Below are positions 1 to 35,233 of a stretch of 36,843 nucleotides of DNA, in pieces. Made by a program: the position numbers and the translations under genes. The number at the start of each line of letters is the position of its first letter. Position 1 is the first letter of the stretch. The DNA comes from Candidatus Omnitrophota bacterium (GTDB taxonomy: Bacteria; Omnitrophota; Gorgyraeia; B26-G9), in contig JAKLQT010000244.1 of assembly GCA_022013205.1 (NCBI GenBank), positions 1-36,843 of the forward strand, given 5' to 3'. The notes below the pieces were generated by a model. That model was not told where the DNA came from. It was given only the letters and a program-made list of their open reading frames with translations, and did not search any database.

Positions 1-1218
1 AGCTTGTATTGTAAATTCTTCAAAAGATATTTATCACAAAAAATTTAGATTTTCAAATCATTCAGAAGGAATAACTTCAATGTTAGCAACCTGTGGCGAG
101 ATAAAACAAAAAGATAATTATAAAGAGCTTGTTTTTGCCCTTGAACCAACCGGCAATTACCACAAGCCATTGGCTAATTATTTATACAATCCGGGTCATA
201 TGGTCTGTTACGTATCTTCTGTCGCGGCTAAAGAAAATAGAAAAACAATTAACGGCCGTTGGCGGAAAAATGATCCTGATGACGCGTATAATATTGCTGA
301 TTTATTGAATCAAGGTAAAATTATGTTTTATGATTTAGAGCATCAAAAACAATTTAAACAATTAAAGCCTTTAATTATTTTACGTAAAAAAACTTCAGAA
401 AAGACTGTGTTCTATAAAAGCTAAAATCAGAAATAATGTTTTCGCGCAATGTTTTCCGGAAATTGATTCTCTATATGAGCAGATTGATAATCCTGAAGTT
501 GTTGAAATATTAAAAAGCTTCCCTGCGGCAGAACAAATAAGAAATACTTCTTTTAAGGAATTCTATGCCAAATTAGCTAAAACCGGACGGATAACGACTC
601 AAAAGAAGCAAAGAATTTATAATGTTTGGCATAAAGCAGCAAATTCGATTGGCTGTTCATTAAACGCAACCATGGAACTAGAATCAAAATTTATACTTCA
701 AGACCTTGAATTAATTAAACAGCAACTCAGGAAAATTGATAGTGAAATAAATTCTATTTGTGGTGCTTCTGAAGATTACAAATTACTTCTTCAAATTCCC
801 GGCTTTGGGCCAATATATACAAGTATATTTTTAGCTGTTGTTAAAGACATTAAGAAATTTAATCATTCAGACCAAATAATAAAGTTGGCTGGACTAGACT
901 TAGAATATAGTCAATCCGGAAAGTATCACAGCAAAAGCCGCATTTCCAAGAAAGGTAACGCGTTATTAAGATATGCCTTATGTGGCGCTGTCAATGGTGC
1001 TCTTAAACATAAAGATTTTAAAATGCTATTTGAAAAACAACTTCAAAGAAAAGGAGATAATAAAGATACTCCCGACTCGACGAATATTAAAAGTAAAATT
1101 AGCGGTAAAAATGATCCGGATTGCCTATGCGGTATTATCAAAAAAAGAACCTTTTGATATCGAGAAGATAAAACTGAATTCGGTGAAGGAGCCTGTTCTT
1201 ATCGAACGTGAGGGCTGA
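1..1218 (+). pseudogene. IS110-family (DEDD / Transposase_20) transposase, 5'-truncated by the window edge and broken by at least two frameshifts
   Basis: Reading frame open from base 2; FALEPTGNYHKPLANYL...NDPDDAYNIADLL (DEDD transposase-like), then in another frame LLLQIPGFGPIYTSIFLAVV...LAGLDLEYSQSGKYHSKSRISKKGNALLRYAL (Transposase_20-like), then a third frame LAVKMIRIAYAVLSKKEPFD. Frame changes near 360-425 and 1060-1100. Confidence 0.88.
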
Positions 1219-15264: not shown

Positions 15265-15293
15265 CTCAGTCACGCCAAATATTTTATTACTGC

Positions 15294-15316
15294 AACATAT
15301 TGCAAAACAATGTGTT
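15294..15316. promoter_or_regulatory. Inverted repeat upstream of promoter copy 1 (aacatattg-5-caatgtgtt)
   Basis: Arms match with one mismatch; related sequence at 20348-20370 and 27115-27137 at nearly the same offset from the -35. Confidence 0.6.
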
Positions 15317-15404
15317 ATATAAATTTATCCGCAGAAAGATTATTCTTCTCTGCAGAAAAAACAAAAACTTGCGGCGTTTTATCCGCTATGAGCTATGAGC
15401 TATG

Positions 15405-15907
15405 TTATATCGCCTGTTCGATAAGCTCTAGGCGCTTCTTGTTAAACACTGTATTTTCTCTTTTGCCCCCCCATATCCATCATCTCCACACTTGTAGCCT
15501 TAATCCAATAGTCTTTTATAACCAAGAGGAATCCATATTCTTTCAGCTCTTTTCTCATAGCCAAAGAAAATCATATCCCAGTATTTACTCAAAGTTACTA
15601 AATTTTTGCTATTCCCATTTATCTTTTTTAAAAGGTTTGCCATCCACCTTTCAAAAACATTAATATCCTTCTTAATTCTCCCATGGCTATTTACAACAAC
15701 CTCGCCTGCCCCGCCCCAGGTAATATCTAATACCAAAAACGCCTGAATCAGCGCCAAAGCAATTATTTTAAATATTCTTTTGTTTTTTGGTTTTTCGTAT
15801 TTCCCAATTTCCATAAATTTCCATAAATTTCTTATTTCTTCGTTCTCGTCCCAGTGAGCGCAGCGAATGGTTTTAATTTTATTCATCCGGCAAATTTTTA
15901 TTTTCAA
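15405..15907 (-). pseudogene. Decayed leader/tag family member: leader KNKRIFKIIALALIQAFLVLDITWGG retained, C-terminal RLELIEQAI retained in another frame
   Basis: 135-aa ORF carries the leader; translating 15405-15481 on the minus strand gives WIWGGKRENTVFNKKRLELIEQAI* in a different frame, next to a C7 homopolymer at about 15466-15472. Confidence 0.75.
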
Positions 15908-18813
15908 ATCGATTGGGCAATAAAAAATTCGTTATTTTTAATTTTAAATGCGGTTACGGCACAAGGCATAACATCCGAAACGGGAATATCTCTCAAAAGA
16001 TGCCCGGCCATTTCTTCAACTTCCAGATTGGTAATATTAAGAGCCTCTCTAACGCGTTCTAAAGAAATACCACTTGTCATACACGCTCGGATATAAGTAT
16101 CTATTTCCTTTCCCAGATTAAATCGCTCAGCAATATATTCCCAGGCAGAAGCTTTCCCGTCAATTATCTGTCTTACCCGCAATAGCTCTTTAGCAAAAAA
16201 AATCCTCATTTGCCTACTGCCGCAATCAGAAATCACTTTAATTAACCTGCTAATATCCAAATTGCTTTTGGCTAAAAATTTTTCTATTTTTGCTATTTCA
16301 CGTTTTAATTCATCATCAGATGATTTACCGGCAACTGTTTTTAATATCTCTCGCATTAATAACAAACTCTCCAAAGAAAACATAAAAAGGCCAATGTTTT
16401 TCTCCGCTTCGGCGACATCTGATGTCAGTTCTGCCTGAAACGCTATTTTATTTTTTATTCTCTCCAGATAAACATTCACATCCTTTATCTGTGTATCTAT
16501 AAAATTACCATAAAGTTGTATAATCTTATCTCTGTCTTCACGGTTTTTGTTGAACCCAAAATTATCAGAATCATTATAAACAAGCATGTAAACCAACGCT
16601 TCATTAATAACCGCCTCTATTGGAAAACGTTCCTCATTTATTAATGAGGAAAATCTTCCTCCTATCTTCTGAGTCGACACCCTGCTCAGATTCTGCCTAT
16701 ACCATACCGGAACCACAATATTTGATTCAGGGAAACCATCAATAAAACTCATTTTAAATATTAAGCCTTCTTCTTTAAAATCAGGCCGTGAGATTAAATT
16801 ACGAAAACTCGGAGTATGGACATAATATTCCAAGAAATTATTTCCCCATGCCCCAAAGAATCTGTAACTCTTGGCCAAAGAATAAATTCTAAAAAAAGAA
16901 TCCCAAAAATCGGCCCATGTGGTATCAGAATTGATTAGTATAAAAAAATTTGTATTTTTAATTTTGTATTTCTCGCATAATTCGATAACCCGTTCTACAT
17001 CATTCATGGAATAACCAAGTTTTCCCCCTTTACCCAAACGACGGATTTCCCTGTCAGTAAAACCATCTACTCCAATTGCGATTCTTCCCAATCCGTTAAT
17101 CTTTGCCAATGACTCGAACAGTGATTCATCAATAATCTTTTTCCCATCTCTTTTTTTGAAAAAGCTATTCACCGAAACCGCTAATGAACCGCAGGTAAGC
17201 CCCAATCCCTGGGTGATTTTCAAAATCTCCATCCCACGGGATTTCTGGATAAACATATCGTCATCAACAAACCAGACAGTCAGGGCTTGTTTAAATTCCG
17301 CAGACAATTCATTTCCTTCATAAAGAGCAGACACCCTTTCTTTATATGCCGTTAAAAATTCCTTCACGCTGTCCACGGAAAATGTCCTGTATACCGGCCC
17401 CATAATCTGAGCGCAAAAACTACACCGGTAAGGGCATCCCCGGCTGGTAATCAATGTTAACCCATACTGAACATCCGATTTATTCAGAAAACCAAAATCA
17501 ATTTTAAACTCTTTCATCGCCTCATCAAGATTATAAAAATAATTCAGATAATCAAGATTTGCAGCAAGGCTAGTTTTACCGAACCGCAAATAGGCGCCAA
17601 ATAACGGTGTTAATTTAAAAGCTGTCTGCCGGGATAAATCCTGAGAGGCTTTCTGTCCTGCCAAAGAAACAAGCGCCTTTTTAAACACACCTTCTGCTTC
17701 TCCGGCAATAATCACATTTGCCTCTGGGATATGCTGAGCAAGCAAATCCGGAGCCAGCGTAACCGAAGGCCCTCCCAGAGCTATAACTACGTCTTTATTT
17801 ACCGCGCGGATAGCACGCACAAAATCCTGAACTGCCTTAATTTCATTGAGGGAAGGCGTAATCATTGATATAGCCATCACATCAATCTTCTCCAGATTAA
17901 TACATTCAATAATCCGGCTATTTTCCGCGTCAGTCGTGCCTTTTACGAATGAAATATTCATCCCTTCTTTTCTTAAACTCATTGCTAAAAACATATTCCC
18001 CAAAGAAGGCCCGGCAAGTGTCTCCGTCCGCGCATCGCGGGCATCAAAAAAATCGACAAAAAGCACGGAAGGTGATTTTTTGTTTTTCTTCAAAGGCATT
18101 TCAATATTTTTTCTAACCATTGTTTCTGTTTTTATACCGGCCATACCGTTAAATGCTTCCGCAATCAATGCCTGGATACGCTCTTTCTCCGCAAAGATAA
18201 GATTAATTCCAATATTTATCTGTAAAAAACAAGAATCTCTGCTTGATTTTATGGTAATTCCCTGCACATCATCACGAATCGTAATCTCGCCAAATACATC
18301 TTGCACTCTAAAACGCCTAAAAAATTCTTCCGCAATAAGCGACTGTATTCTCATCTTAGCCGCTTCCTTTTGCTGAGATGATTTTTCCGCTTCATAATCC
18401 TTACTCTCTTCCCTGACAAACCACGTCCCGGGAAAACCAATTGTTTGTTCCACCGGCAGATTATCTTTAGCACGAATAATCCTGCCTCCCGCGTCGAACT
18501 GAACCCTTGTTCTCTGGGGATAAATATTATATTTCTTTTGTTTAAGCTTTGATAATCGCAACTGCGGCAAATTGGTTATTTCATGGCCAATTTGTAACCC
18601 GCTACCCGGATTATAGCTGATGCCAAACTGGCCATAATCACTGTATGCTTTCTGAAATAATTCCTTATTTATTTCAAGCTGAGGGCTTAAACTGGTTACA
18701 ATCTTTCCGCACCTATCATTATCAGTGAAAGATAAATCACTAAATCCAAAATCCAGCATCATAAAAGCATGGATAAGCGCTAATGAAATTATTTTAAATA
18801 ACCTTTTATTCAT
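15904..18813 (-). CDS. B12-binding-domain radical SAM protein with family leader and C-terminal tag IAQSI, 969 aa
   Basis: Leader MNKRLFKIISLALIHAFMMLDF; TSLSPQLEI motif; B12-binding-like VVIALGGPSVTLAPDLLAQHIPEANVIIAGEAE; radical SAM CxxxCxxC ITSRGCPYRCSFCAQIMGPVYRTFS. Confidence 0.85.
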   Translation of the reverse strand: MNKRLFKIISLALIHAFMMLDFGFSDLSFTDNDRCGKIVTSLSPQLEINKELFQKAYSDYGQFGISYNPGSGLQIGHEITNLPQLRLSKLKQKKYNIYPQRTRVQFDAGGRIIRAKDNLPVEQTIGFPGTWFVREESKDYEAEKSSQQKEAAKMRIQSLIAEEFFRRFRVQDVFGEITIRDDVQGITIKSSRDSCFLQINIGINLIFAEKERIQALIAEAFNGMAGIKTETMVRKNIEMPLKKNKKSPSVLFVDFFDARDARTETLAGPSLGNMFLAMSLRKEGMNISFVKGTTDAENSRIIECINLEKIDVMAISMITPSLNEIKAVQDFVRAIRAVNKDVVIALGGPSVTLAPDLLAQHIPEANVIIAGEAEGVFKKALVSLAGQKASQDLSRQTAFKLTPLFGAYLRFGKTSLAANLDYLNYFYNLDEAMKEFKIDFGFLNKSDVQYGLTLITSRGCPYRCSFCAQIMGPVYRTFSVDSVKEFLTAYKERVSALYEGNELSAEFKQALTVWFVDDDMFIQKSRGMEILKITQGLGLTCGSLAVSVNSFFKKRDGKKIIDESLFESLAKINGLGRIAIGVDGFTDREIRRLGKGGKLGYSMNDVERVIELCEKYKIKNTNFFILINSDTTWADFWDSFFRIYSLAKSYRFFGAWGNNFLEYYVHTPSFRNLISRPDFKEEGLIFKMSFIDGFPESNIVVPVWYRQNLSRVSTQKIGGRFSSLINEERFPIEAVINEALVYMLVYNDSDNFGFNKNREDRDKIIQLYGNFIDTQIKDVNVYLERIKNKIAFQAELTSDVAEAEKNIGLFMFSLESLLLMREILKTVAGKSSDDELKREIAKIEKFLAKSNLDISRLIKVISDCGSRQMRIFFAKELLRVRQIIDGKASAWEYIAERFNLGKEIDTYIRACMTSGISLERVREALNITNLEVEEMAGHLLRDIPVSDVMPCAVTAFKIKNNEFFIAQSI

Positions 18814-19080: not shown

Positions 19081-20200
19081 TTATATCGCCTGCCCTATCA
19101 ATTCCAAGGCTAAAATTTCAGGACACAGCGCCGGCAATTCGGGAGCTGCCAGCAACTGCATTTTTTTCTCCGCCACGCCAAGCTGTTCCTCCAGCTTAGG
19201 CAAGGCGTTTTTCGGATCGCCAGTACGGATTTCCGTCTTCCACTCGCCGGCTAAATAAGGTTGCCGGCTCTTCTTCCGTAATTTTTACGGCAAAAACGCG
19301 CTTCTCCGGCACAGTCACCAATGCCGGACGCGGAAATAATTCCGAGAGATGCTGCCACCATTCTTTGAGCTTGTCTTTCAGCTTGTTCCTAAGCGAAATG
19401 TAATTTTTCAGCGGCCAAATTACGTAAGAATACGGCCAAATTAGCGGCATGATCGCCAGGGATAAATGCGGCTCATAAAAGTAAAGATGCAGATCGCCTT
19501 TCCAGTCTACGGCAAAGGCTTTGGGCCGGCTGAATTCCCGTTTCAGCGTCTTGTTTTCGTTTTGCGGATCATCCGCGAAAAGCTCAAGGTCACCTTGATA
19601 AAACACCAGCAGCCCGCGGCCATCCTCATAATTTTCATTAATATGTTTAGCTAAGAGCTCAACATAAAAAGCAACAACAAACACACCAGCGAGAGAAGAA
19701 ACTAAATACGTCAGAGCATTGAAGTTAAACCCTTTGATAGTAGAGACAAAATAAACGACAATTTTAGCCACCAGAGACGCCCAACATCCGGCCCGAATTT
19801 CCATCAGATGCTCTCGAATATCTTCCGGCAAATCCTCAAAAGCAATAATAATTTTGCCTTTCGGCTGGTTATTATCCCCGCGCTTGCCGCTAGTTGCCTT
19901 CTGCGCATTCTGCGGGTTCTTCCTGCCGGAAACACCAGGAGATTCCGCCGGCAGAGCCATCCTCATCGCCCCGCTTACACCGCCGGATGCCGCAGCGAAA
20001 AATTCCAAGCCGCCGGACGAAAACTGCGAGCCACGGTCTGCCAGCCGCGAATAAGCCGTTTGAAACTGCTCCGCTCCGATTTGCACCTGCGGATTCAAAG
20101 TCTTTGGCTCAGCGACCCGGCCTGTGCCGCACCACGCGCAATCCATCACCAAAAATGCCTGGATTAATACAAACGCAATCAATCTGAATAATTTATTCAT
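19081..20200 (-). pseudogene. Leader/tag family membrane protein interrupted by one frameshift (or assembly error); full product would end EILALELIGQAI
   Basis: 334-aa ORF (19196-20200) starts MNKLFRLIAFVLIQAFLVMDCAWCG and has TLNPQVQI; shifting frame around 19240-19265 gives PYLAGEWKTEIRTGDPKNALPKLEEQLGVAEKKMQLLAAPELPALCPEILALELIGQAI* ending at 19081. Confidence 0.75.
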
Positions 20201-20291
20201 TTTATTTTATTTTTTCCATTTTCAAAATACTTAATTCATTAAAATAAATAAAGTTATGATTATATCCCGCCATTTTTTAAAATGGCATAAA

Positions 20292-20320: not shown

Positions 20321-20347
20321 AAAAAAGAATAAACATTTCATTACTGT

Positions 20348-20370
20348 AACACCTTATAATACAATGCGTT
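20348..20370. promoter_or_regulatory. Inverted-repeat-like element upstream of promoter copy 2
   Basis: gtaacaccttataatacaatgcgttac; same offset from the -35 as in copies 1 and 3. Confidence 0.5.
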
Positions 20371-20584
20371 ACACAAGCGTATCCGAGAGGTTAACCATTC
20401 TTTTGGCAGAAAAAACAAAAACCTGCGGCGAATAAATTGGTATTTACGATTAGTTTTGCGGCTCTCGCAATTTATTATGATTGTTGTTGCCCAAAAACCT
20501 TTACAGCGGAAAATCCTCTAATGATTCTTATCTACTTGACTTATCTTAAAAAATATAGTATTCTTTTTTATAGGAGAATTACAT

Positions 20585-21164: not shown

Positions 21165-21209
21165 TAGACGGAAAAATCAAATGCAATTATTTTAAATATC
21201 CTTTTATTC
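21165..21209 (-). pseudogene. Remnant 5' end of a leader-family gene (MNKRIFKIIA then divergence)
   Basis: Minus strand ATGAATAAAAGGATATTTAAAATAATTGC; the upstream flank (about 21210-21350) nearly duplicates the upstream flank of the 969-aa gene (18814-18935). Confidence 0.55.
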
Positions 21210-21350
21210 ATACTTCAGCCCTTCTGCCATCATCCTTCAAGAAATCTCTCCCTGTTTCTATAAAATTTCAATGAATTTCTATCAATTTCCAACAATTCCT
21301 TATTTCTCAGTTTTAATTTAATTTCAATCAATTTCCACTAATTTCTTATT
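21210..21350. repeat. Copy of the 18814-18935 upstream region (direct repeat) rich in GAAATTTATTG-like 11-nt units
   Basis: Shared atacttcagccctctgccatcatccttcaagaaat and aatttccaacaattccttatttctcagttttaatttaatttcaatcaatttccac in both. Confidence 0.85.
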
Positions 21351-21409: not shown

Positions 21410-24400
21410 TTATATCGCCTGCTCGATAAGTTCCAAATTAATGGTTAAATTTTCTTCAAGTTTTACGCTTACGCTCTCTAATAACATTTTCACTTGAATC
21501 TCTGATGGATCATCCACTTTTACCATATGTACATCCGGCAGTGATTCGGCGGAGATTACTGCCTGCGATGGGTCGTTTTTACCAAATATAGCTGTACGCA
21601 AATCAAAATTACTCTCAATATCCGCCCTAAGAATTTCTTCTTCTGCAGCATCCTCGGTTTTATAAACCTTCTCCAGAGCATACTGTTCTTCAATTTCCTG
21701 TTCAGTTTTAGTATTCATCGGCTTTAGCAATAAATCAAAAAGCCCTGTTGAAACCACCGGCTGGGTTTGCTGATACAATCCCGCAGTAATAGTACCCGGC
21801 ACAGAATGTCCGTAACAATCAGAGTAGTCGAATTCAGAACGGCCGCGGAAGAGCTGGAACACATACTGTTCAATTGCCCCTTCTTTAACTTTATCATTTA
21901 CCGCCGGCCTGTATTGAGAACCCGCAACAGGCAAGCCGGTTTTTTGCGACAATATATCCAGCGCCGCATAGAGTTTGTCGATTTCTCTTACACCAAACTG
22001 CGTACTCTCTTCCACAAAGATATCCGCTTGTTTATTGCCATCCTTGTCCTCCAATATTCTCAGCCTGACTATCCTTCTGGTAATAACGTTTCTATTCTCA
22101 TCCAATAATACCACTGCCTTGTTTGTCCCGTTAACCACATAACCCGTAAGCCCCCTGCTTAAATTAGTGCCATAGGTACAGCTCTGGCATGCCGTTGAGC
22201 CGCGATAGTTTCCTATGTTAAATAGAATATAGAAGTCATCGGTAAACTCAATAGCCGCCTTATCTCCTTTTTCCGTTGTTATTACATACTGAAGAAGCTT
22301 TTCCCAATTTTTAATTTTTTCAATCCGCGATTTTAAACCAGCGAACCCATCAAGATTATGCAATTTTTCATAAAGAGTCTCTCCTTGAGCTTGTTCAAAT
22401 GCTTTTTTAAGCGCTGTTTGTTCTTTTACAGAAAGCTTATTAATCTCTATATCTATAATTTCATCTATAGTCTTTTTATAATCTTCGCTTTCATATTTCC
22501 ATTGCTTAAAACGACCGTCAATTTCCGCCTCAAGGGCAGCTAAAATATTTTCATAGATTTCCTTATCGGTAATGGACCTTAGATAAATATCTATCAGATT
22601 ATAAATGTTTCTTCCTTGATGATCTCTCCATTTAAATCTTGGATTATTTGCCGCGTAATTTCTTAATTTTTCAAGGAAGACAGATTCATTCCCTATAGAT
22701 ATAAATTTTTTAAATCGAGCTAACAAAACTTCGGCATCAATCATTGCTAATCGCTCTGATAGATCTTTTATTTTTGCGTCATTAATGTCTTTTCCGGATA
22801 AGAGATCATTCAAAATAGCTTCACTATTGCTCTCAAAGATTTCGTTGATAAGTTCTGGAAACAGTTTATCTTTAGATTTTTTATAAGTATCAATGACTTT
22901 TAAATACTGTTCCAGGTAATACATCAGTTCATCATAAAATCTCTCTGAATTCTCCGGAGAAGGAAAACCTTCTCTTTGCTCAATAGCTTCCAGAAGTTTT
23001 GCCAAAAGCTCACCGCTGCGATCATAATTCAATGTCAATAACAAAACCATCTGTTCATATAATTTGTTTTTAACCGTAGCTAACTGGTCATGTATATTTT
23101 TATTGGTGTTTAACGATCTAATCAATTGCCTGAAGGTATTCAGGGTTTTTGTATCTGAGTTTATCCGTAACAGTATTCCATAAAATATATGCGGGATTTG
23201 TGTTGTTATTTTCGACAATGTAATCTGTTGAAATAAGTTATTGATGTCTTCTTTAAAACATTTCAATTCTTCACCGGACAGTTTCGTAGCCGCATATTTT
23301 CTTTCCTGGTATAAATTTCGCAGCTGTTTAAATACCTCTTTCTGCTGTTTCTTATCTTGCAATCGAACGGCATTTTCTAAGTAATCATAAAAAACAGTAT
23401 TCTCAGCCAATAAATAACGGTTCTCCTCAAGAAAATATCTTATAAAAAGTGCCTTTCCACCAAGTGTTGTTAAATTGCCTCCATTTTTGAGTTCATCAAT
23501 TATCTTTAGAATTATTGTATTATCTGTCGTGATACCAAATAAAACTTTTAAACAAATCCTTAATTGACTCCCGGCTGGCTGCCCCAAAAACTGAGTTTGC
23601 AACTCGGAAAATAATTCATCTTTTTTTTCAATTGATAAAGCGTCAATGGCCTGAAATCCATCAGCGAGCATATCTTCTTTGGCTTCTTGCGAAATACTTT
23701 CCAGCTTAAATCTTAAGATATCCAATAAACTAAGATTGCTGCCTTCCGCAATAAGATTTAACCCAGGAAATTTCTGCGCCTTATCAATTTCTTCCAATAC
23801 GCTGATTAAATCTTCCACCGTCTTACCCTGCCTGCTCAACCCTTGAGAAACCGGCTCAAGCTGTTCGATCTTGGCTTGTAAAACAAATAAGTTAGACAAA
23901 ATCCAGCCTGCCTGTCTTATGATAAAGTCTGCGTTAGGCATGCCCTGCAACTGCTGTTTTACAGCATTCGTTATTTCTTCTAATGACTGCTTTGGGTCTT
24001 CTATAATTGTTCTGATGATTTTCTTAATATCTTCTATCGAAAGATATTTTAGCAGTTCGTTTATCGAAGAAATCTCGATTTTATATCGTTCCGGGTTATT
24101 TCTAAAAAACCGATCAAAAATCTCCTTGGCTTGCGAAATATTTTCCAAAGAGAATAAATATTCGAATAAGCTGTTTTTTTGATCCTCGCCGATCCTCATT
24201 TCAGCCGGATGAAGCGTCACTTCCCGGTTCAGGTTATAGGCAATCTCATTTAGTTGCGTTTTAAAAGCAGGCTCAGACAATCTTCCAAGAATGTTTTCAA
24301 TATCCTTTCTCTGGTCTTTTATAAACCTCGCAAGCTTTATATTGATTTTTAATGCCTTGGCAATTATTGCTTCCGGTGCAGCGTTAAGAATTTGTATTTT

Positions 24401-26968
24401 AAAATCTTTGGGTATTAAATTGCTCCACAAAACCTGCTCTATAAATCCATATACTTTTCCATTTGCTTCTTTAAAATGCCTATTAAAAACACCATTTAAA
24501 ACAGGCTCTATGAGAAAATCCGACTTATCCAGGGCAATAAACACGTTTTTGATAATTTTAACATGAGAAATAAGTTCAGGATTAAATATTTCAAGGATAC
24601 TTTTAAAATCGGAATTATCCCCGTAAACTATTTTATATAGTAATACAGCTAGTACCGCATCTTTTAATTTTTTATTAGTAGAGTTAACCAAAATATCTTT
24701 TATTGTAGGATAGGCATCATTTAAGTCTAAAGTATGCTTCCATTTCTCGAAGTAATCCATGCCAAAAACCTGTTTATTTTCATCCTTATCATCCTTGAGC
24801 ATCTCCAAAAACAACTTTTGCACCCCCTGGTTTATCCTTTGACGCGCCGGATTTAGCAACCGCTCATTTTCAGGGTTTTTAATAAAATCTAACTCGAAAC
24901 CAAGTTCTTGGCATGTTTTCTCAATAGCCTCCTTCAAGTCTAATATGTCGTTTTCTTTGCTGTATATTTTTGTTCCTTTTGCCTTATTTTCATCCTCTCT
25001 ATAAATTCTCAAATATTCTCTAAATAGATTTCTATAATAATAAGAACTGCCCGTAAGATAATTCTCAAAAAGATAATTTTTGTCTTCGTGACTTATACCC
25101 AAATAGTCATTTTTTACAAAAGCCTCTTCAAATTTTCGAAATAAAGGATTATCAATGTGTGTTTGGAGAAAACTTGCGGGATTATCCCGGATAGTCTCCA
25201 CAACTTCCATTAAACCATCAACATTATTTTCTCTTAATTGATCCATTTGATCCGGGGTTAAGGAAGATAAAAATTTACCCAAAGAACGCAATAGAGGATT
25301 TTCTCCTGAAATTCCTTTCTCCCGCCAGGCGTTCATAATAATCAGCGGCGTTAATTCTACCCTTAACTCAGGATTTTCCTCCACTAATCTGAGTAGTAAT
25401 TTACCTAAATTAACACTTTCTTTCGTGCCTGAAGAAGATGCAATCAGCAGCGCGGAAATTTTGGTTTTTAACCACTGCCAATTTTCCGGCGTGAGTTTTA
25501 ACTCCTCAAGAGAACTGCATATCTCTATAAATGAATTCGATAAAACATATCCCACGTTCTGGTTGAAATACCTGCTTTGAGAGGCCTTGGCTAATAAGGT
25601 AGTTAAGGTATTGATTTCAGTTTTATATTGTTCGACAATCACAGACGTCCCAAAAGCCGTTAAAAGATGGTAAAATTTACCTTCCTCGGATTGGGCGATT
25701 TTCCCCAGCTCTCTGATTACAAAATTATAAATTTCAGGATCAAAATCATGGAATAGGGCTTCCTTAAGGATATCTTCCAGAGATAAATCGCTCCTGTCAT
25801 TTAGCGGGATAATTTTCCAGATAATCACCGCTAAAGATACCCGGTTATCCTGACTAAGTTCACTAATTAACGCTAAAAACTTTTTTTGCTTGGCTTTGCC
25901 GGATAACTGTTTGGAAAGAGCGGTTAATAATTTGTCCGCTAAAAAATTATATTCTCCGGCGCTATCATCTTTTTTATACACCTCATATACTATATTCCCG
26001 TTTCTCTTGATCTGAACACCGTCAATGCCAAATTTGTGCGTTAGTCCTATGTCATAATCTTTGGTTTTAATTAAAATACCGCCTTTAAACTTTACGCCTT
26101 TTAACGCGGCCATGGCCGAATCTATCGCCTTATTTGCCTGATAAAATCCGATGCGCTTTCTGATGTCCTTCTTATATCTATTCCATAACCAGGCTCCGCC
26201 GCCTAACAATAATGCCGAGCCAAGCGTACCTCCTACTACTTTTCCCAGAAAAGACAAATCTTTTTGCCAACCTTCCCTTTTCCTTTGCTTTTCCCTGTCA
26301 ATTGCCTCCGCGATTATTTTTTTATCGTCTTTAAATTTCTCGTCTACGAAGACCACCTTATGCTCCCTGTCCCCAATGAGAAACTGAAGCCTGGCGTCTG
26401 CTTTCATTCCCCATTCAGACAAGTTTTTTATCGCAACCAGATAATATTTTTTCGCGTCATCCTCATAAACCGGATATTTCGCGAGCAAGGCAATGCTTTC
26501 CTTTCGCCATTTTTCGTATTCATCCTGATGTTTCTTTTCTTCGTTATTCTGAAATATCGCCCATAAGCCTCCTATTTTTTTTCTATGCTTATCTTCTGCC
26601 TCTACCGCTTGTTTTAAATCCTGAGGAAGATTGCCGCGCAGGAAGCTAATATATTTTCTATGCTCTGCATCTTCATCTGCTCCTTCTAGATTTTGGGTTG
26701 TTGCCGCCGCTGATTTTTTTTCTGATTTCCCCAAACCGGCCACCCCAAAGGCCCCAAGCAAAAAATCACGGCGGCTGATTTTGGTACCCTTTTCCTGAGA
26801 TTCAGTAAAAATATTTTGCAGCGGGGCCTCTACCATATTTACCTTAGGCGCTAATAAACTTGCTCGTGTCGTATTGTCAGTAAATAAATTAACCCCGCAC
26901 CACGCGCAATCCATAACCAAAAACGCCTGGATTAATACAAACGCAATCAATCTGAATAATTTTTTCAT
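21410..26968 (-). CDS. Giant leader/tag family protein, alpha-helical-repeat-like, 1852 aa, ends LELIEQAI; internal Tat-like SRRDFLLGAFGVAGLG
   Basis: MKKLFRLIAFVLIQAFLVMDCAWCG leader; SLLAPKVNM motif; Tat-like motif about aa 65-80; TM about aa 245-265; long helical body; C-terminal Cys-containing domain NYRGSTACQSCTYGTNLSRGLTGYVVNG. Confidence 0.8.
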   Translation of the reverse strand: MKKLFRLIAFVLIQAFLVMDCAWCGVNLFTDNTTRASLLAPKVNMVEAPLQNIFTESQEKGTKISRRDFLLGAFGVAGLGKSEKKSAAATTQNLEGADEDAEHRKYISFLRGNLPQDLKQAVEAEDKHRKKIGGLWAIFQNNEEKKHQDEYEKWRKESIALLAKYPVYEDDAKKYYLVAIKNLSEWGMKADARLQFLIGDREHKVVFVDEKFKDDKKIIAEAIDREKQRKREGWQKDLSFLGKVVGGTLGSALLLGGGAWLWNRYKKDIRKRIGFYQANKAIDSAMAALKGVKFKGGILIKTKDYDIGLTHKFGIDGVQIKRNGNIVYEVYKKDDSAGEYNFLADKLLTALSKQLSGKAKQKKFLALISELSQDNRVSLAVIIWKIIPLNDRSDLSLEDILKEALFHDFDPEIYNFVIRELGKIAQSEEGKFYHLLTAFGTSVIVEQYKTEINTLTTLLAKASQSRYFNQNVGYVLSNSFIEICSSLEELKLTPENWQWLKTKISALLIASSSGTKESVNLGKLLLRLVEENPELRVELTPLIIMNAWREKGISGENPLLRSLGKFLSSLTPDQMDQLRENNVDGLMEVVETIRDNPASFLQTHIDNPLFRKFEEAFVKNDYLGISHEDKNYLFENYLTGSSYYYRNLFREYLRIYREDENKAKGTKIYSKENDILDLKEAIEKTCQELGFELDFIKNPENERLLNPARQRINQGVQKLFLEMLKDDKDENKQVFGMDYFEKWKHTLDLNDAYPTIKDILVNSTNKKLKDAVLAVLLYKIVYGDNSDFKSILEIFNPELISHVKIIKNVFIALDKSDFLIEPVLNGVFNRHFKEANGKVYGFIEQVLWSNLIPKDFKIQILNAAPEAIIAKALKINIKLARFIKDQRKDIENILGRLSEPAFKTQLNEIAYNLNREVTLHPAEMRIGEDQKNSLFEYLFSLENISQAKEIFDRFFRNNPERYKIEISSINELLKYLSIEDIKKIIRTIIEDPKQSLEEITNAVKQQLQGMPNADFIIRQAGWILSNLFVLQAKIEQLEPVSQGLSRQGKTVEDLISVLEEIDKAQKFPGLNLIAEGSNLSLLDILRFKLESISQEAKEDMLADGFQAIDALSIEKKDELFSELQTQFLGQPAGSQLRICLKVLFGITTDNTIILKIIDELKNGGNLTTLGGKALFIRYFLEENRYLLAENTVFYDYLENAVRLQDKKQQKEVFKQLRNLYQERKYAATKLSGEELKCFKEDINNLFQQITLSKITTQIPHIFYGILLRINSDTKTLNTFRQLIRSLNTNKNIHDQLATVKNKLYEQMVLLLTLNYDRSGELLAKLLEAIEQREGFPSPENSERFYDELMYYLEQYLKVIDTYKKSKDKLFPELINEIFESNSEAILNDLLSGKDINDAKIKDLSERLAMIDAEVLLARFKKFISIGNESVFLEKLRNYAANNPRFKWRDHQGRNIYNLIDIYLRSITDKEIYENILAALEAEIDGRFKQWKYESEDYKKTIDEIIDIEINKLSVKEQTALKKAFEQAQGETLYEKLHNLDGFAGLKSRIEKIKNWEKLLQYVITTEKGDKAAIEFTDDFYILFNIGNYRGSTACQSCTYGTNLSRGLTGYVVNGTNKAVVLLDENRNVITRRIVRLRILEDKDGNKQADIFVEESTQFGVREIDKLYAALDILSQKTGLPVAGSQYRPAVNDKVKEGAIEQYVFQLFRGRSEFDYSDCYGHSVPGTITAGLYQQTQPVVSTGLFDLLLKPMNTKTEQEIEEQYALEKVYKTEDAAEEEILRADIESNFDLRTAIFGKNDPSQAVISAESLPDVHMVKVDDPSEIQVKMLLESVSVKLEENLTINLELIEQAI

Positions 26969-27058
26969 TTTATTTTATTTTTCCCATTTTCAAAATACTT
27001 AATTCATTAAAACAAATAAAGTTATGATTATATTCTGTCATTTTAAAAAAGGCATTTA

Positions 27059-27087: not shown

Positions 27088-27114
27088 GGGAGGCGGTAAA
27101 TATTTTATTGATGT

Positions 27115-27137
27115 AACATCTTAAAATACAATGTGTT
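27115..27137. promoter_or_regulatory. Inverted-repeat-like element upstream of promoter copy 3
   Basis: gtaacatcttaaaatacaatgtgttat. Confidence 0.5.
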
Positions 27138-27267
27138 ATGTAAATATACCCGAAAAGAAAACCATTCTTTTGGCAGGAAAAACAAAAACTTGCGGTGAAT
27201 TGTTTGCAGCCTAAATGATAAACAATGATATTTGAGAACATCCTTCTAATGCAAATTTCGGGATGAT

Positions 27268-30200
27268 TTATACGGCTGATTCTATGGTAGAGTGCGGCGA
27301 TAACGGTTGTATTGTGTGCCGCAGAGTGAGAGTAGGTACTTTTACATTTTGAACCTTCCCCTTGGAGTTAGGAACTACCCTTTTATCCTTTCCGCCTGGA
27401 GCCTGATTGATTTTAGAGATAGTCTCATGGGGAACATAAGGAACTATAATTTCTCCCAAATCCAGGATGTTTAACCGCGGCTTCTCCGGATTTCGCTTAT
27501 CAACATAATAAAAATCCACATTGTAACGCATTTTTGCCGTATCCATTACTCCGTTTTTTACCGGATGTCCTAACCGTGTAATAACCGTATCACTAATTTC
27601 AAACCTATTGACAACCCTGATATCTCCGCCTGTATACAGGGAACCGCTGGGGCCGGAATCTTTTGTCATCGCTTCCGCACTTTGCTTATATAATGTCATC
27701 AATGCTTTTTCTTCCAGCAAAGATAACCTCTCTTCCTTTACTGCTTGCTGAACACGGTTTAAAAAATCCGGCCGACAAAAATATGACCCGTAAGATTCCA
27801 CAAAAAAACTTTCCACCAGTTGCTTGCTTAAGTTACGCGCTTTAAGCTCCTTTTGCAAAAATACTTCGGGTAAAGCATGAAAATGAAAAGAGAAAACTCC
27901 GTTTATAAAACGCCGATCATCCAAGTTTTCGTAACTGTCGTCTTTTTCCGAATAAGACTGCACACTGTTCGGCCATAAAGTTCCGTCTTGTCTTAAATCC
28001 CAGATTCCTCCGTATTCGGTGGTGTGATCAAACATATCCTTAGCGCCGATTTCGCTCAATCTTGCGGCTAGTTGCGGATTATGCAAGGCCTTCTCTACGA
28101 GTACGAGGCGTAAAAGAGCCAGATTGGAAAATCTTTCAAATGCCGGACGTTCGGTGTAATCAGAAGACGGCTTTATTTTCTTTGGGCCATCTTCTGTCCA
28201 AATGGTTATCGGCAAATCATCCCTTTTCTGTCGTGGGAAAGCCTTACGGGTTAATATATCCTTAATTTCACGGATCATTGCCTGACGGTCAAACAGCATC
28301 TTTTCAAGCTCTGGCGAAATCTCATTTAAAAGCAGCACATCGCTGATAGTCACCCGTTCTCCCAGAGTTTCCAATCTGTTGATAATTCCTTCCATTCTTT
28401 CCCGGTTAAATTTTTCGGCTATTCTTATCACTGTTAAAAAAGAGGAGCTGTGCAATTGCCTGATATAAAAACGCGTCTTAATAAATGAAACTACATCCTT
28501 AAATCGCAAAGAAAAAAGCAGGCTCATTTTTTCGCGGTCCTTTGCAACCGAATCGTAGAGTTCGGATAATTTCATAAGATCACGGATATCTTTTGCCCCC
28601 CCGTAAAATTGTTTGATGATTTTCTCGCTGAACCTTAAGAAATTATTGTCCTTCAAGTTATGAACAAACCGTTTGTCCGAATACGCGGCCATGGCCGCTA
28701 TTTTCAGCGGCTTATAGTCACGATAATTCGTCTTTAAATCAAAACCAAGCCGCGCCAGTTTATCCAGCACAAAAACCGTCTCAGGAGTGTAGTTATCTGA
28801 AATGTCCAAGGCTTTCAACAATATTTTTTCCTTCGTCCCTTTCCCCGGATACATGCGGGAAAAGAAGGCATTGAGCTCATCATATATCGGCCGCATTGAC
28901 GGTTTTTCCAGATCTTCCAACAGATAATCTATTGTAAAAATGGAAATATTATTTGAAAATTCCACAATTTCAATTTTACTGAATCCATATTTTTTTTGTA
29001 AAATATTCGCGGCTTTGAGAAATTTCTCAACATCTATCAACTTATAACATAAAAACCACTGTAACCATGCCAGGGGAACTTTTCCCTCAACAAGTTCTCC
29101 TTTTTTCTGGAAATACTCAACAAAATATTCTTTCCATAGTTTACCCTTCTTTTGCGCCTCGAGGTCATATGCTTCTATCAGCAAACGCGCATTATTTAAG
29201 AAACCAACTTTGTCATAAAAATCATTCAGGGCCGTAAGCACAACAGGTTTGCCGTCCTCAATCCGGCTTATTAAGCGATATTGTTTCTTCAGCTTTACAA
29301 ATTTTTCGGCATTCTTTTTATCCAAATAAAAATCGCGTTCTTCCGGGTTGAGCAATATCTCAATAAACCGGTCAAATCCCAGGCTGCTTAACTGCCAATT
29401 TTTTATCAAAACATCATAGAGAGTAGCGGTAACAGGCGATTGCAACTGCTCATAAATTTGTTTGAAATTCAAATCATATTCCGCCGCTTTACCAAATATG
29501 TTCTCTTGCGGCAATACTACTGCCTTGAAATTTTTTTTCTCTAAAAGATTTATGATTTTGATCCTGGTTTTAACATCTTCCAATTTGAATTCCGGCATGC
29601 CTCTTGTCCTTAAACGCTGTATACTGTCATTCAACCGCCAAAAATCCTGCTGCGAACCATAAGCCTTAATAATATGGGTCATCACCCCCAGAGACATCCG
29701 GTTTTTTAATTCAGGATAGCGCGCAGTTAATTTATCAACGAATCTCCGGAAGTTACGGTTATCGGCAGAAGGAAAGACATAGCTTCCGGCATAGTCTGAG
29801 GTGAAATCAAGCTTACCGAGATTAGTATTAAAAAGGCTTAACAGGGAATCATAACGCATTAAAAAATCCTTAAACTCAGCGGGGCTCATCTCATCCGTCG
29901 CCCAAACCTCCAGATACTTATCTACAAGCTCAAGCTTTCTTAGATTAAAAGCGCCGGCTATCTTATATAACAATTTCCAGAATAAACTATCTTTCTGCCT
30001 ATAAAAACTACTTCTCAGTGACAAAACATCACTGTGACCGAGAAACTCGCTTACTGTCTCATATGCAACTCTCTGCGGATATTTATCCTTAAAATAGGAC
30101 CAGATCGTTAATGACAAGGGATGACTTAAAGATTCCATTTTATCCTTATCCACTTCAACCAGACTTTTAAAATCAGATACATCTTCGATTTTAACTCCAT

Positions 30201-31323
30201 ATGTTGAGCGGAGAAATACATATTGCCGCGCCCATTTTTTAACGGTTTTTTCGTAATCAATTTTCTCTCGCAATGGGCTTTCAGCAAGAGCAGTCAAAAT
30301 CCTTATATTCAGAAGGTAACTGATATCAAATTCTACGCCCAACGGTTTAAAATACTGTTTAAGAACAGAAAAAGACTGCGTTATCCGGCCGGACACAAAC
30401 TGCTCCAAATGGGGAGGCGATAAATATATATCCAGCGCTTGGGACAGATAATTGTTTGGAGTTATGTTATACATTTTTTCCAAAAAATCACAAAATACCC
30501 TAAACTCCGGACTTTTTAAAGTATGTAAATATATCTTTTTTTCTTTTTCCTCTTTCGTGATAATGGTAAAGATTTCTAAAAAAGGGACATCAGCGGTTTG
30601 CAAATCCAGATTTTCCGCCGCCCATAACAATGTTTCTTTAAACTCGCGCGAGGAGATAATTACCTTAATTTCAGCAAGAGTTTTTTTCAGGAGACTCCTA
30701 TCAAATTCAATCAATTCGAATGAAAATTGTTCGTTGAATTCCCGTAAGATTGAAAGCATTTGCGCATTTTCCAGGGTAAAAAATTTTCGTTTTGTAATAC
30801 CGGGATTCCTGCCCTTGTGCCAGTCGAAAACTAAATCCCATCTGTACCATCCCTGCGCCCTCAATATTAATAAGAGATCTTTCGCGGGAATGGATTCCAG
30901 TGTTACATCCCCGGCTATTAACTGCTCTCTGGTTGCCTGAAGTTCGGAAATATTTCTTGAGATGCCGGGAGGAAACAGCTGATGTCCGCTGAACCCAGGT
31001 ATTAGTCGGTCACCGGGTTGCATAAGCATTAAAAGAGCAGACATTGTTAATATGGCTTTTTTTATTTTACTCAGTCTTTTTGCTTCCAGAACAAAATCGG
31101 CATTGCCCTTTTCCGGAAGAACAATGTTTTCTGCTTGAAAAATCTGTTTTACATGTTCTTGCGAAATTTGGACGGCAGGAGCAAGCGTATCATAAGCTTT
31201 TTCTCCGCTAATGACCATGTCATTGCCGGCCATTCCCGTGGAAAAACAAAAAATTGGCGGAAAAATAAGTAAACTAATTAATTTTATTAATCTCGGGCTT
31301 AACTTTATTTTGTCTATCTTCAT
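27268..31323 (-). CDS. Giant leader/tag family protein, helical, 1351 aa, ends TIESAV
   Basis: N-terminal hydrophobic LIKLISLLIFPPIFCFSTGMAG; TLAPAVQISQEHVKQIF motif; second TM AILTMSALLMLMQPG; long helical body; C-terminal FSFHFHALPEVF...DSGPSGSLYTGGDI. Confidence 0.75.
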   Translation of the reverse strand: MKIDKIKLSPRLIKLISLLIFPPIFCFSTGMAGNDMVISGEKAYDTLAPAVQISQEHVKQIFQAENIVLPEKGNADFVLEAKRLSKIKKAILTMSALLMLMQPGDRLIPGFSGHQLFPPGISRNISELQATREQLIAGDVTLESIPAKDLLLILRAQGWYRWDLVFDWHKGRNPGITKRKFFTLENAQMLSILREFNEQFSFELIEFDRSLLKKTLAEIKVIISSREFKETLLWAAENLDLQTADVPFLEIFTIITKEEKEKKIYLHTLKSPEFRVFCDFLEKMYNITPNNYLSQALDIYLSPPHLEQFVSGRITQSFSVLKQYFKPLGVEFDISYLLNIRILTALAESPLREKIDYEKTVKKWARQYVFLRSTYGVKIEDVSDFKSLVEVDKDKMESLSHPLSLTIWSYFKDKYPQRVAYETVSEFLGHSDVLSLRSSFYRQKDSLFWKLLYKIAGAFNLRKLELVDKYLEVWATDEMSPAEFKDFLMRYDSLLSLFNTNLGKLDFTSDYAGSYVFPSADNRNFRRFVDKLTARYPELKNRMSLGVMTHIIKAYGSQQDFWRLNDSIQRLRTRGMPEFKLEDVKTRIKIINLLEKKNFKAVVLPQENIFGKAAEYDLNFKQIYEQLQSPVTATLYDVLIKNWQLSSLGFDRFIEILLNPEERDFYLDKKNAEKFVKLKKQYRLISRIEDGKPVVLTALNDFYDKVGFLNNARLLIEAYDLEAQKKGKLWKEYFVEYFQKKGELVEGKVPLAWLQWFLCYKLIDVEKFLKAANILQKKYGFSKIEIVEFSNNISIFTIDYLLEDLEKPSMRPIYDELNAFFSRMYPGKGTKEKILLKALDISDNYTPETVFVLDKLARLGFDLKTNYRDYKPLKIAAMAAYSDKRFVHNLKDNNFLRFSEKIIKQFYGGAKDIRDLMKLSELYDSVAKDREKMSLLFSLRFKDVVSFIKTRFYIRQLHSSSFLTVIRIAEKFNRERMEGIINRLETLGERVTISDVLLLNEISPELEKMLFDRQAMIREIKDILTRKAFPRQKRDDLPITIWTEDGPKKIKPSSDYTERPAFERFSNLALLRLVLVEKALHNPQLAARLSEIGAKDMFDHTTEYGGIWDLRQDGTLWPNSVQSYSEKDDSYENLDDRRFINGVFSFHFHALPEVFLQKELKARNLSKQLVESFFVESYGSYFCRPDFLNRVQQAVKEERLSLLEEKALMTLYKQSAEAMTKDSGPSGSLYTGGDIRVVNRFEISDTVITRLGHPVKNGVMDTAKMRYNVDFYYVDKRNPEKPRLNILDLGEIIVPYVPHETISKINQAPGGKDKRVVPNSKGKVQNVKVPTLTLRHTIQPLSPHSTIESAV

Positions 31324-33823: not shown

Positions 33824-35233
33824 ATGAACAAAAGAATATTCTTTAAAACAGTATCGTTCGTCCTTATTATATCATTTTTGTCGCTGGATATGTCTTGGGC
33901 GGGGGGAAGAATAATCCCTCCCTCTAAAAACAAAAACACACTCAGTCCATCTCTGCAAATAGATAGCCAAGAAATAAAAAATTCCCTGAAAACTCATTAT
34001 TTTAAATTATCAGCTCCTACTAAAATCAAAATAAACTCGGGACATATTAACCTTCAAAATTATAAGCGTCCTAAAGTACTTAATATATCAGAATTTATTA
34101 AGGGAATAAGCTTTTTATTAATATCTATTGGTATACTTAGTTTTATCTTACAAAAATTTATGGGCAGATTCACGGCAGAGTATATATCTATTAGTCTAAT
34201 CGTAGGCATTAGCGGTGCAATGATGACTATTCTCAATGAAGTGAGTATAGCAATTTTCGGCAGAGAATTCACAATAAATCTTACTTCGCTGCCTGAACTC
34301 GATATTGAAGGAGTTTCAAATTTAGCGCCAAAGATAAAAGATCGATTTTTAAACATGCTATATCGGCTTGGATTAAGAAATGAACTAAACTTTAAAAACC
34401 CAAGCCCCAGCGGAGATTTCGTAATTTTAGGGAGCAAAACGTTAAACATGGATGATGAAACGGTAAAAGTATATTTTGTCAATTCTCTTAATCCTATGAA
34501 ATCCTCTTTTGAAAATGGCCATGCTTTTATAACCAACCCCAAAGAACGAAAAATCCATGTCGTCCTTAATGTTATTGCGCAGGAAATTAATTGCGAAATT
34601 ATGCCTTATTTGGAAAAAGGTGAAATTAGACTGCCGCATAACGACCGATTAGCCTTAGAATTTAAAAACAATCCTGCACTTTTAAACAATCACAAAGAAA
34701 CAATAGCCTTGATTTATTCATTATTAGGAAGGGAATTTGAAGGCATGTCCAGGGAACAGGTAACCCAAAAAATCGTTAATGCTGCCATCAAGCACAAATT
34801 AACCCAGCTCTCTTTTAACTTAACCGGGCAAAAGATTGAAGACAAAAACCTTGACCTTTTACTAAAAATTAAAGACGGGACAACACCGTTTTTAGCGCTT
34901 AAAGCTCTATTATCTAACGCTATATTAGGAGAAGAGAGTAATGAAATCATAAAAATGCTCGGCAAGGAATTATCATATCCGCATTCATCCGCAACAACCT
35001 ACCAGGATTGGCTTGAAACCTCCGGGATACTCAAAATAGAACATTCAGAACTCAAAAAAATAGCGAAAGAAATTTATTATCAAATCAGGCAAAAAACAGA
35101 AGCACAAAATTCAATACCTTCTGAAACTTTAGGAGTGAAAACTTTGAGCAGTATTCCCCCTCTGCCCCCCAGCCTATCGATGCTCGCCGGCAATCCGCAG
35201 CACTCTATGTTACCTTTCGAACAAGCGATTTAA
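33824..35233 (+). CDS. Leader/tag family membrane protein, 469 aa, ends LPFEQAI
   Basis: MNKRIFFKTVSFVLIISFLSLDMSWAGG leader; TLSPSLQI motif; TMs about aa 85-140; C-terminal FEQAI. Confidence 0.8.
   Translation: MNKRIFFKTVSFVLIISFLSLDMSWAGGRIIPPSKNKNTLSPSLQIDSQEIKNSLKTHYFKLSAPTKIKINSGHINLQNYKRPKVLNISEFIKGISFLLISIGILSFILQKFMGRFTAEYISISLIVGISGAMMTILNEVSIAIFGREFTINLTSLPELDIEGVSNLAPKIKDRFLNMLYRLGLRNELNFKNPSPSGDFVILGSKTLNMDDETVKVYFVNSLNPMKSSFENGHAFITNPKERKIHVVLNVIAQEINCEIMPYLEKGEIRLPHNDRLALEFKNNPALLNNHKETIALIYSLLGREFEGMSREQVTQKIVNAAIKHKLTQLSFNLTGQKIEDKNLDLLLKIKDGTTPFLALKALLSNAILGEESNEIIKMLGKELSYPHSSATTYQDWLETSGILKIEHSELKKIAKEIYYQIRQKTEAQNSIPSETLGVKTLSSIPPLPPSLSMLAGNPQHSMLPFEQAI

What the first reader, a model, noticed from the sequence alone, without database searches (positions are those of the whole stretch)
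26729..26968. Giant protein with a Sec-like leader AND an internal Tat-type motif
The 1852-aa protein has the family leader at residues 1-25 and then KISRRDFLLGAFGVAGLG at about residues 64-80, a textbook Tat n/h-region (S-R-R-x-F-L) that normally sits at the very N-terminus. Other members also have a second hydrophobic segment after the leader (1351 aa: AILTMSALLMLMQPG; 469 aa: GISFLLISIGILSFILQ). The family leader may therefore be a removable prefix added in front of proteins that already had their own targeting signal.
Basis: partly seen in the sequence, partly recalled or inferred. Interest (0 to 1): 0.78.

Follow-up and report, generated by a model that had tools for sequence, protein, structure and literature searches.

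The report
Swappable leader before a Tat-like signal
A giant protein from an uncultured bacterium (probably Omnitrophota) carries a shared export leader followed 40 residues later by a second, twin-arginine-type export signal, and it belongs to a seemingly undescribed family of dozens of proteins per genome that share only a leader, a short 'LSP' box and an 'LIEQAI' tail around mostly unrelated middles.

Summary
The 1852-aa protein (21410-26968, minus strand) has the leader at residues 1-25 and SRRDFLLGAFGVAGLG at 65-80. It is one of about 180 collected members (9-47 matches per genome in all 12 genomes of one GTDB family, nearly absent elsewhere in the class). Members share a Sec-type leader, an L[SA]P box near residue 41 and a C-terminal LIEQAI-like tail (134/148 complete members); bodies are mostly unrelated. 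RRxF[LIVM] is about 21-fold enriched at residues 61-120: seven members in seven genomes, from four body groups, carry RRxFL followed by a small/hydrophobic segment. Tat genes and ordinary N-terminal Tat substrates are present. The leader is modular: two window genes with unrelated bodies share about 95% DNA identity upstream and through codon 25, then nothing, while an ortholog of the giant has a different leader. So 'swappable leader in front of a protein with its own signal' is supported as evolution; 'removable' is untested. In this protein the Tat segment is marginal (12 uncharged residues; 7 in one ortholog, absent in another), favouring a captured, decaying signal over a second working step; use of both signals in series at one membrane is topologically awkward. 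The larger discovery is the two-ended family.

The parts
21410..26968 (-). 1852-aa giant protein gene
   Evidence: Open frame with family leader and family tail
26894..26968 (-). Family leader, residues 1-25; Sec-type signal peptide with predicted cleavage near AWC/G
   Evidence: Profile match E 2.2e-28; 24 of 25 residues identical to the leader of the 334-aa gene
26834..26860 (-). L[SA]P box, residues 37-45 (SLLAPKVNM)
   Evidence: Same position in 87% of members found with the leader alone
26729..26776 (-). Tat-type motif and short h-region, residues 65-80 (SRRDFLLGAFGVAGLG)
   Evidence: ortholog L082 has DRREFL at 85-90
26702..26728 (-). Charged c-region and possible cleavage site, residues 81-89 (KSEKKSAAA)
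   Evidence: Sequence; inference
21413..24502 (-). Conserved body, residues 823-1852; mostly helical, weak GNAT-like stretch
   Evidence: 51% and 36% identical to L082 and L083; low-confidence model and fold search
21413..21436 (-). Family tail, residues 1845-1852 (LELIEQAI)
   Evidence: Tail consensus [LF][IV]EQ[AS]I at the very C-terminus
26895..27050 (-). Upstream region plus leader cassette, 94% identical to 20127-20282
   Evidence: Repeat D4; block scan
20127..20282 (-). Second copy of the upstream plus leader cassette, in front of an unrelated body
   Evidence: Repeat D4
19196..20200 (-). 334-aa leader-family gene; its tail LELIGQAI lies in another frame at 19081-19107
15904..18813 (-). 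969-aa member with B12-binding and radical SAM domains, ends FIAQSI
27268..31323 (-). 1351-aa member with second hydrophobic segment at 90-104, ends TIESAV
33824..35233 (+). 469-aa member with hydrophobic segment at about 91-110, ends PFEQAI
15405..15784 (-). Broken member: leader (15695-15784) and tail LELIEQAI (15405-15428) in different frames

Best explanation
The leader is the N-terminal half of a two-ended tag (Sec-type signal peptide, L[SA]P box about 15 residues after the predicted cleavage site, C-terminal LIEQAI tail) that recombination has spread onto many unrelated proteins in this lineage. It most likely sends the protein across the cytoplasmic membrane by Sec, with box and tail sorting it further (inferred). 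The internal SRRDFL segment is a Tat-type signal that the body had before, or acquired independently of, its present leader. In this protein it is probably a captured and decaying signal now overruled by the leader: once Sec has acted it lies on the far side of the membrane, where Tat cannot read it, and its h-region is short. In other members the second signal is intact and may still work. Shown: modularity, recurrence, presence of Tat machinery. Inferred: routing and decay.
For: Leader/box/tail statistics; leader cassette with sharp end at codon 25 before unrelated bodies; ortholog L082 with a different leader but 51% identical body; RR.F[LIVM] about 21-fold enriched at 61-120; tatA-tatC-tatA and classical Tat substrates such as the NiFe hydrogenase small subunit; short or broken h-regions in the window protein, L082 and L089 and none in L083; topology rule for internal Tat signals (PMC5449189).
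Against: L082 keeps RR-x-FL exactly while its h-region degrades, which pure decay does not predict; L087, L107 and L309 have full second signals; L122/L085 lost RR but gained hydrophobicity and kept an AxA site, which looks like continued selection. No signal predictor or experiment was run. Many bodies are cytosol-type enzymes, odd for plain Sec export.
Confidence: 0.48

Rival explanations
1. Functional bipartite targeting: the leader takes the protein across one membrane or out of the cell and is cut off, and the exposed second Tat or Sec signal is then read at another membrane, as with bipartite plastid presequences.
For: Complete second signals with AxA sites in several members, sometimes ahead of envelope-type domains (probable SLT transglycosylase in group B; HExxH motifs in L139, L144, L134); RR lost but hydrophobicity kept in L122/L085; many other bodies are cytosol-type.
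Against: No second compartment or partner cell is shown; most members lack a second signal; L089, with RRxFL, carries a helicase-like domain.
Confidence: 0.14
2. The RRxFL in this protein and its ortholog is not a Tat signal: an amphipathic or charged segment that resembles one.
For: h-region of 12 and 7 uncharged residues; low hydropathy (15-aa KD 1.00 and 1.39); absent in L083.
Against: Positional enrichment across unrelated bodies, including without the window protein and its ortholog; one ordinary N-terminal Tat signal of the lineage (L318) also has 12 uncharged residues.
Confidence: 0.23
3. Co-operative Sec-Tat insertion: the leader stays as a membrane anchor and Tat then moves the folded body.
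For: Tat can read tethered internal signals (PMC5449189); Fe-S membrane proteins of this arrangement occur in the lineage (RR at 311-313).
Against: One N-in leader would place RR on the outside; the known rule is an even number of N-in spans before RR. The leader has a signal-peptidase-like end.
Confidence: 0.08
4. Two products from one gene: an internal start gives a short form beginning just before the Tat motif.
For: ATG at codon 45 with AAGG upstream, 21 residues before RR; in L309 a TTG after GGAGG 15 residues before RR.
Against: No consistent start and Shine-Dalgarno arrangement across the eight candidates.
Confidence: 0.05

Closest known systems
Dual Sec-Tat targeted membrane proteins (Sco2149 Rieske type; PMC5449189)
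   Same: An internal twin-arginine signal downstream of a Sec-handled segment
   Different: There an even number of N-in spans leaves RR in the cytoplasm; here a single N-terminal leader precedes RR
Long-n-region Tat precursors
   Same: SRRxFL with an AxA-type c-region far from the N-terminus
   Different: Here the upstream part is itself a signal-peptide-like leader shared with proteins that have no Tat motif
YSIRK/GXXS leader plus LPXTG tail surface proteins (abstracts; general knowledge)
   Same: A special N-terminal signal and a C-terminal sorting element on diverse bodies
   Different: No LPXTG, no transmembrane tail; the tail is LIEQAI at the extreme C-terminus; an L[SA]P box follows the leader
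PEXEL / RxLR host-targeting proteins of eukaryotic parasites (own knowledge; analogy only)
   Same: Signal peptide, short motif 15-30 residues later, unrelated bodies
   Different: Different motif, bacterial, extra C-terminal tail; no export to a host shown
Omnitrophota giant ORFs (PMC10066038)
   Same: Very long, poorly annotated proteins in what is probably the same phylum
   Different: In the passages read no leader, box or tail family is described; many members here are short

Membership tests
Tat substrate | (S/T)RRxFL motif | tested here: met
   SRRDFL at 65-70
Tat substrate | Uncharged h-region of at least about 13 residues (TATFIND-type rule, from memory) | tested here: inconclusive
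   12 residues; lineage N-terminal Tat signals 12-25
Tat substrate | Signal at the N-terminus | tested here: not met
   RR at 66-67 behind another leader; no consistent internal start
Tat substrate | Tat translocase in the genome | tested here: met
   tatC and two tatA/B genes on C203
Tat substrate | Export depends on RR and Tat | not testable with these tools
   Needs an experiment
Sec type I signal peptide | Basic n-region, hydrophobic h-region, small-x-small cleavage site | tested here: met
   MKK, 15-aa KD 2.44, AWC/G; AWA/G in relatives; no SignalP run
Dual Sec-Tat membrane protein | Even number of N-in spans before RR | tested here: not met
   One hydrophobic segment before RR
Leader / L[SA]P / LIEQAI family described here | Leader, box and tail all present | tested here: met
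   Residues 1-25, 37-45, 1845-1852
LPXTG or PEP-CTERM surface proteins | C-terminal motif, transmembrane helix, basic tail | tested here: not met
   C-terminus is ...NLTINLELIEQAI

The most novel reading that the evidence does not exclude
The leader, L[SA]P box and LIEQAI tail mark an effector-like secretome of a host-dependent bacterium: cytosol-type enzymes act inside a partner cell, and members with a second Tat or Sec signal are re-exported by the partner's own machinery to act on its envelope.
Probability: 0.06. Interest if true: 0.92.

Novelty: new variant of a known kind. Interest (0 to 1): 0.6.

Why it matters
Omnitrophota are known for giant proteins of unknown fate. A leader-box-tail signature that picks out roughly 10-45 proteins per genome gives a handle on what this lineage exports and how. 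A Tat signal placed behind another leader, with relatives that keep it, shorten it or replace it by a Sec-like stretch, is a natural series for studying how proteins change export route.

Tried and rejected
Named relatives of the 1852-aa protein in GTDB contigs: none; MiaA was used instead and its best hits were Omnitrophota at 46-48% identity, so the phylum is inferred. Leader search in those loci: nothing. AF2 of the group B N-terminus: mean pLDDT 45, unusable for a fold, residues 24-133 all low confidence, so the 'buried in a domain' test stays weak. PDB sequence searches: no credible hits. Fold search of the conserved body: only weak GNAT-like matches, best E 0.014. Alternative start before the Tat motif: not consistent. 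The idea that second signals occur only before envelope-type domains: not upheld, L089 carries a helicase-like domain. Literature searches for a similar double signal or an Omnitrophota sorting motif: nothing found in the held library.

Full report
Observation. Translation of 21410-26968 on the minus strand shows the leader MKKLFRLIAFVLIQAFLVMDCAWCG and, from residue 65, SRRDFLLGAFGVAGLG followed by KSEKKSAAA. The given interval encodes exactly residues 1-80. The protein has no Pfam, NCBIfam or PADLOC match.

Family. A leader profile found about 37 matches in the window's own genome, some weak, and 9 to 47 per genome in all 12 genomes of the same GTDB family, against single matches in 9 of about 280 other genomes of the class. 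I collected 180 members. With a model of the leader alone, 87% have L[SA]P at residues 28-75 (median 41; controls 2-4%), and 134 of 148 complete members end in [AS][IV], consensus [LF][IV]EQ[AS]I, against 19 of 163 other ORFs, several of which look like fragments of members. Bodies are mostly unrelated: 115 similarity components. The 180 are the best-scoring matches, not a random sample, and the comparison ORFs include spurious ones.

Bodies. Where recognisable they are often cytosol-type: HATPase, GGDEF, methyltransferases, radical SAM, HD, 4-alpha-glucanotransferase, ARMT1, and an adenylate kinase in a 510-aa frame besides an ordinary adk in the same genome. The window protein's conserved body is mostly helical with a weak GNAT-like match. 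Group B (L087, L107, L121, L122, L085) carries a probable SLT transglycosylase domain: L121 passes the Pfam cut-off, L107 and L087 match the other half weakly, and ES and YN-G are invariant.

Second signals. RR.F[LIVM] is about 21-fold enriched at residues 61-120. Members with RRxFL and a following small or hydrophobic stretch are the window protein (G000), L082 (G003), L087 (G009), L089 (G010), L107 (G002), L121 (G006) and L309 (G008); L125 (G003) has RRSVL. The longest uncharged runs after RR are 12, 7, 22, 10, 21, 11, 19 and 23, against 12-25 for N-terminal Tat signals of the same lineage. L122 and L085 have lost RR but keep a hydrophobic stretch and PADA/PAVA. L139, L144 and L134 have Sec-like second signals with AxA sites. 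A simple detector finds signal-like segments at residues 58-150 in 23 of 160 members, against 64 of 1177 deeper windows.

Modularity. The 1852- and 334-aa genes are 93-100% identical in 15-nt blocks over 75 coding nucleotides and 60 upstream, falling to 20% at codon 26 (D4). The giant's ortholog L082 has a quite different leader on a 51% identical body. In L082 the tail stays last although about 200 extra residues precede it.

Machinery. tatA-tatC-tatA lies on C203 of the genome; TatC is found in 10 of 12 genomes, the others being incomplete assemblies. Classical N-terminal substrates exist (NiFe hydrogenase small subunit, DUF362), and Fe-S membrane proteins with RR at 311-313 resemble known dual Sec-Tat proteins.

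Test of 'orthologs start at the Tat motif'. None was found. Relatives of the group B domain outside the GTDB family lie inside giants; the N-termini read for four of them (L297-L300) look like ordinary signal peptides without RRxFL.

Mechanism. In dual Sec-Tat proteins RR must face the cytoplasm, hence an even number of N-in spans before it (PMC5449189). Here one N-in leader would put residue 66 on the far side, so the two signals cannot act in that order at one membrane. Higher hydrophobicity can replace RR in Tat targeting (PMC5539426), so L122 and L085 need not have left Tat. I consider a captured, decaying Tat signal most likely for the window protein, and leave open that intact second signals in other members still work.

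Limits. The phylum assignment rests on MiaA hits. The genome is a MAG with 7% contamination. No signal-prediction program and no experiment was available, and structure models were of low confidence.

Noticed in passing
window 19081-20200, 15405-15784, 21179-21211: Broken leader-family genes: the 334-aa ORF stops before its tail, which continues in another frame; one remnant keeps only leader and tail; one keeps only about 11 leader residues.
   Followed up: partly
L084 363-17998 (G010 C34): Seven leader-family genes on one strand within 18 kb, around miaA, as in the window.
   Followed up: no
L032 (G000 C71): A second contig of the same bin repeats the window's gene order (miaB, TPR/SPOR, miaA, 2607-aa leader protein, pdxA, ksgA), so the bin probably holds two related species.
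   Followed up: no
L126-L127, L086/L142, L147, L178: Leader-family frames of about 7,300 to 9,600 residues.
   Followed up: no
L298, L299: Giants of other families of the class share another leader, with ...VIAL(I/L)(L/I)V..F.PEQVAWA.
   Followed up: no
L089 6294-10829: Leader, Tat-type motif and a helicase-like domain (matches PADLOC MkoA and NCBIfam PLuB_AAA) in one 1511-aa protein.
   Followed up: partly
L107 residues 1346-1445: Weak match to N-terminal asparagine amidohydrolase and the XopAK family in a leader protein.
   Followed up: no
window 27097-27200, 20330-20433, 15276-15379: A 104-nt sequence upstream of leader genes repeated at 80% and 67% identity (D3), perhaps a shared promoter region.
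   Followed up: no
window 80-1157: Two ORFs that look like fragments of an IS110-type transposase (by eye).
   Followed up: no
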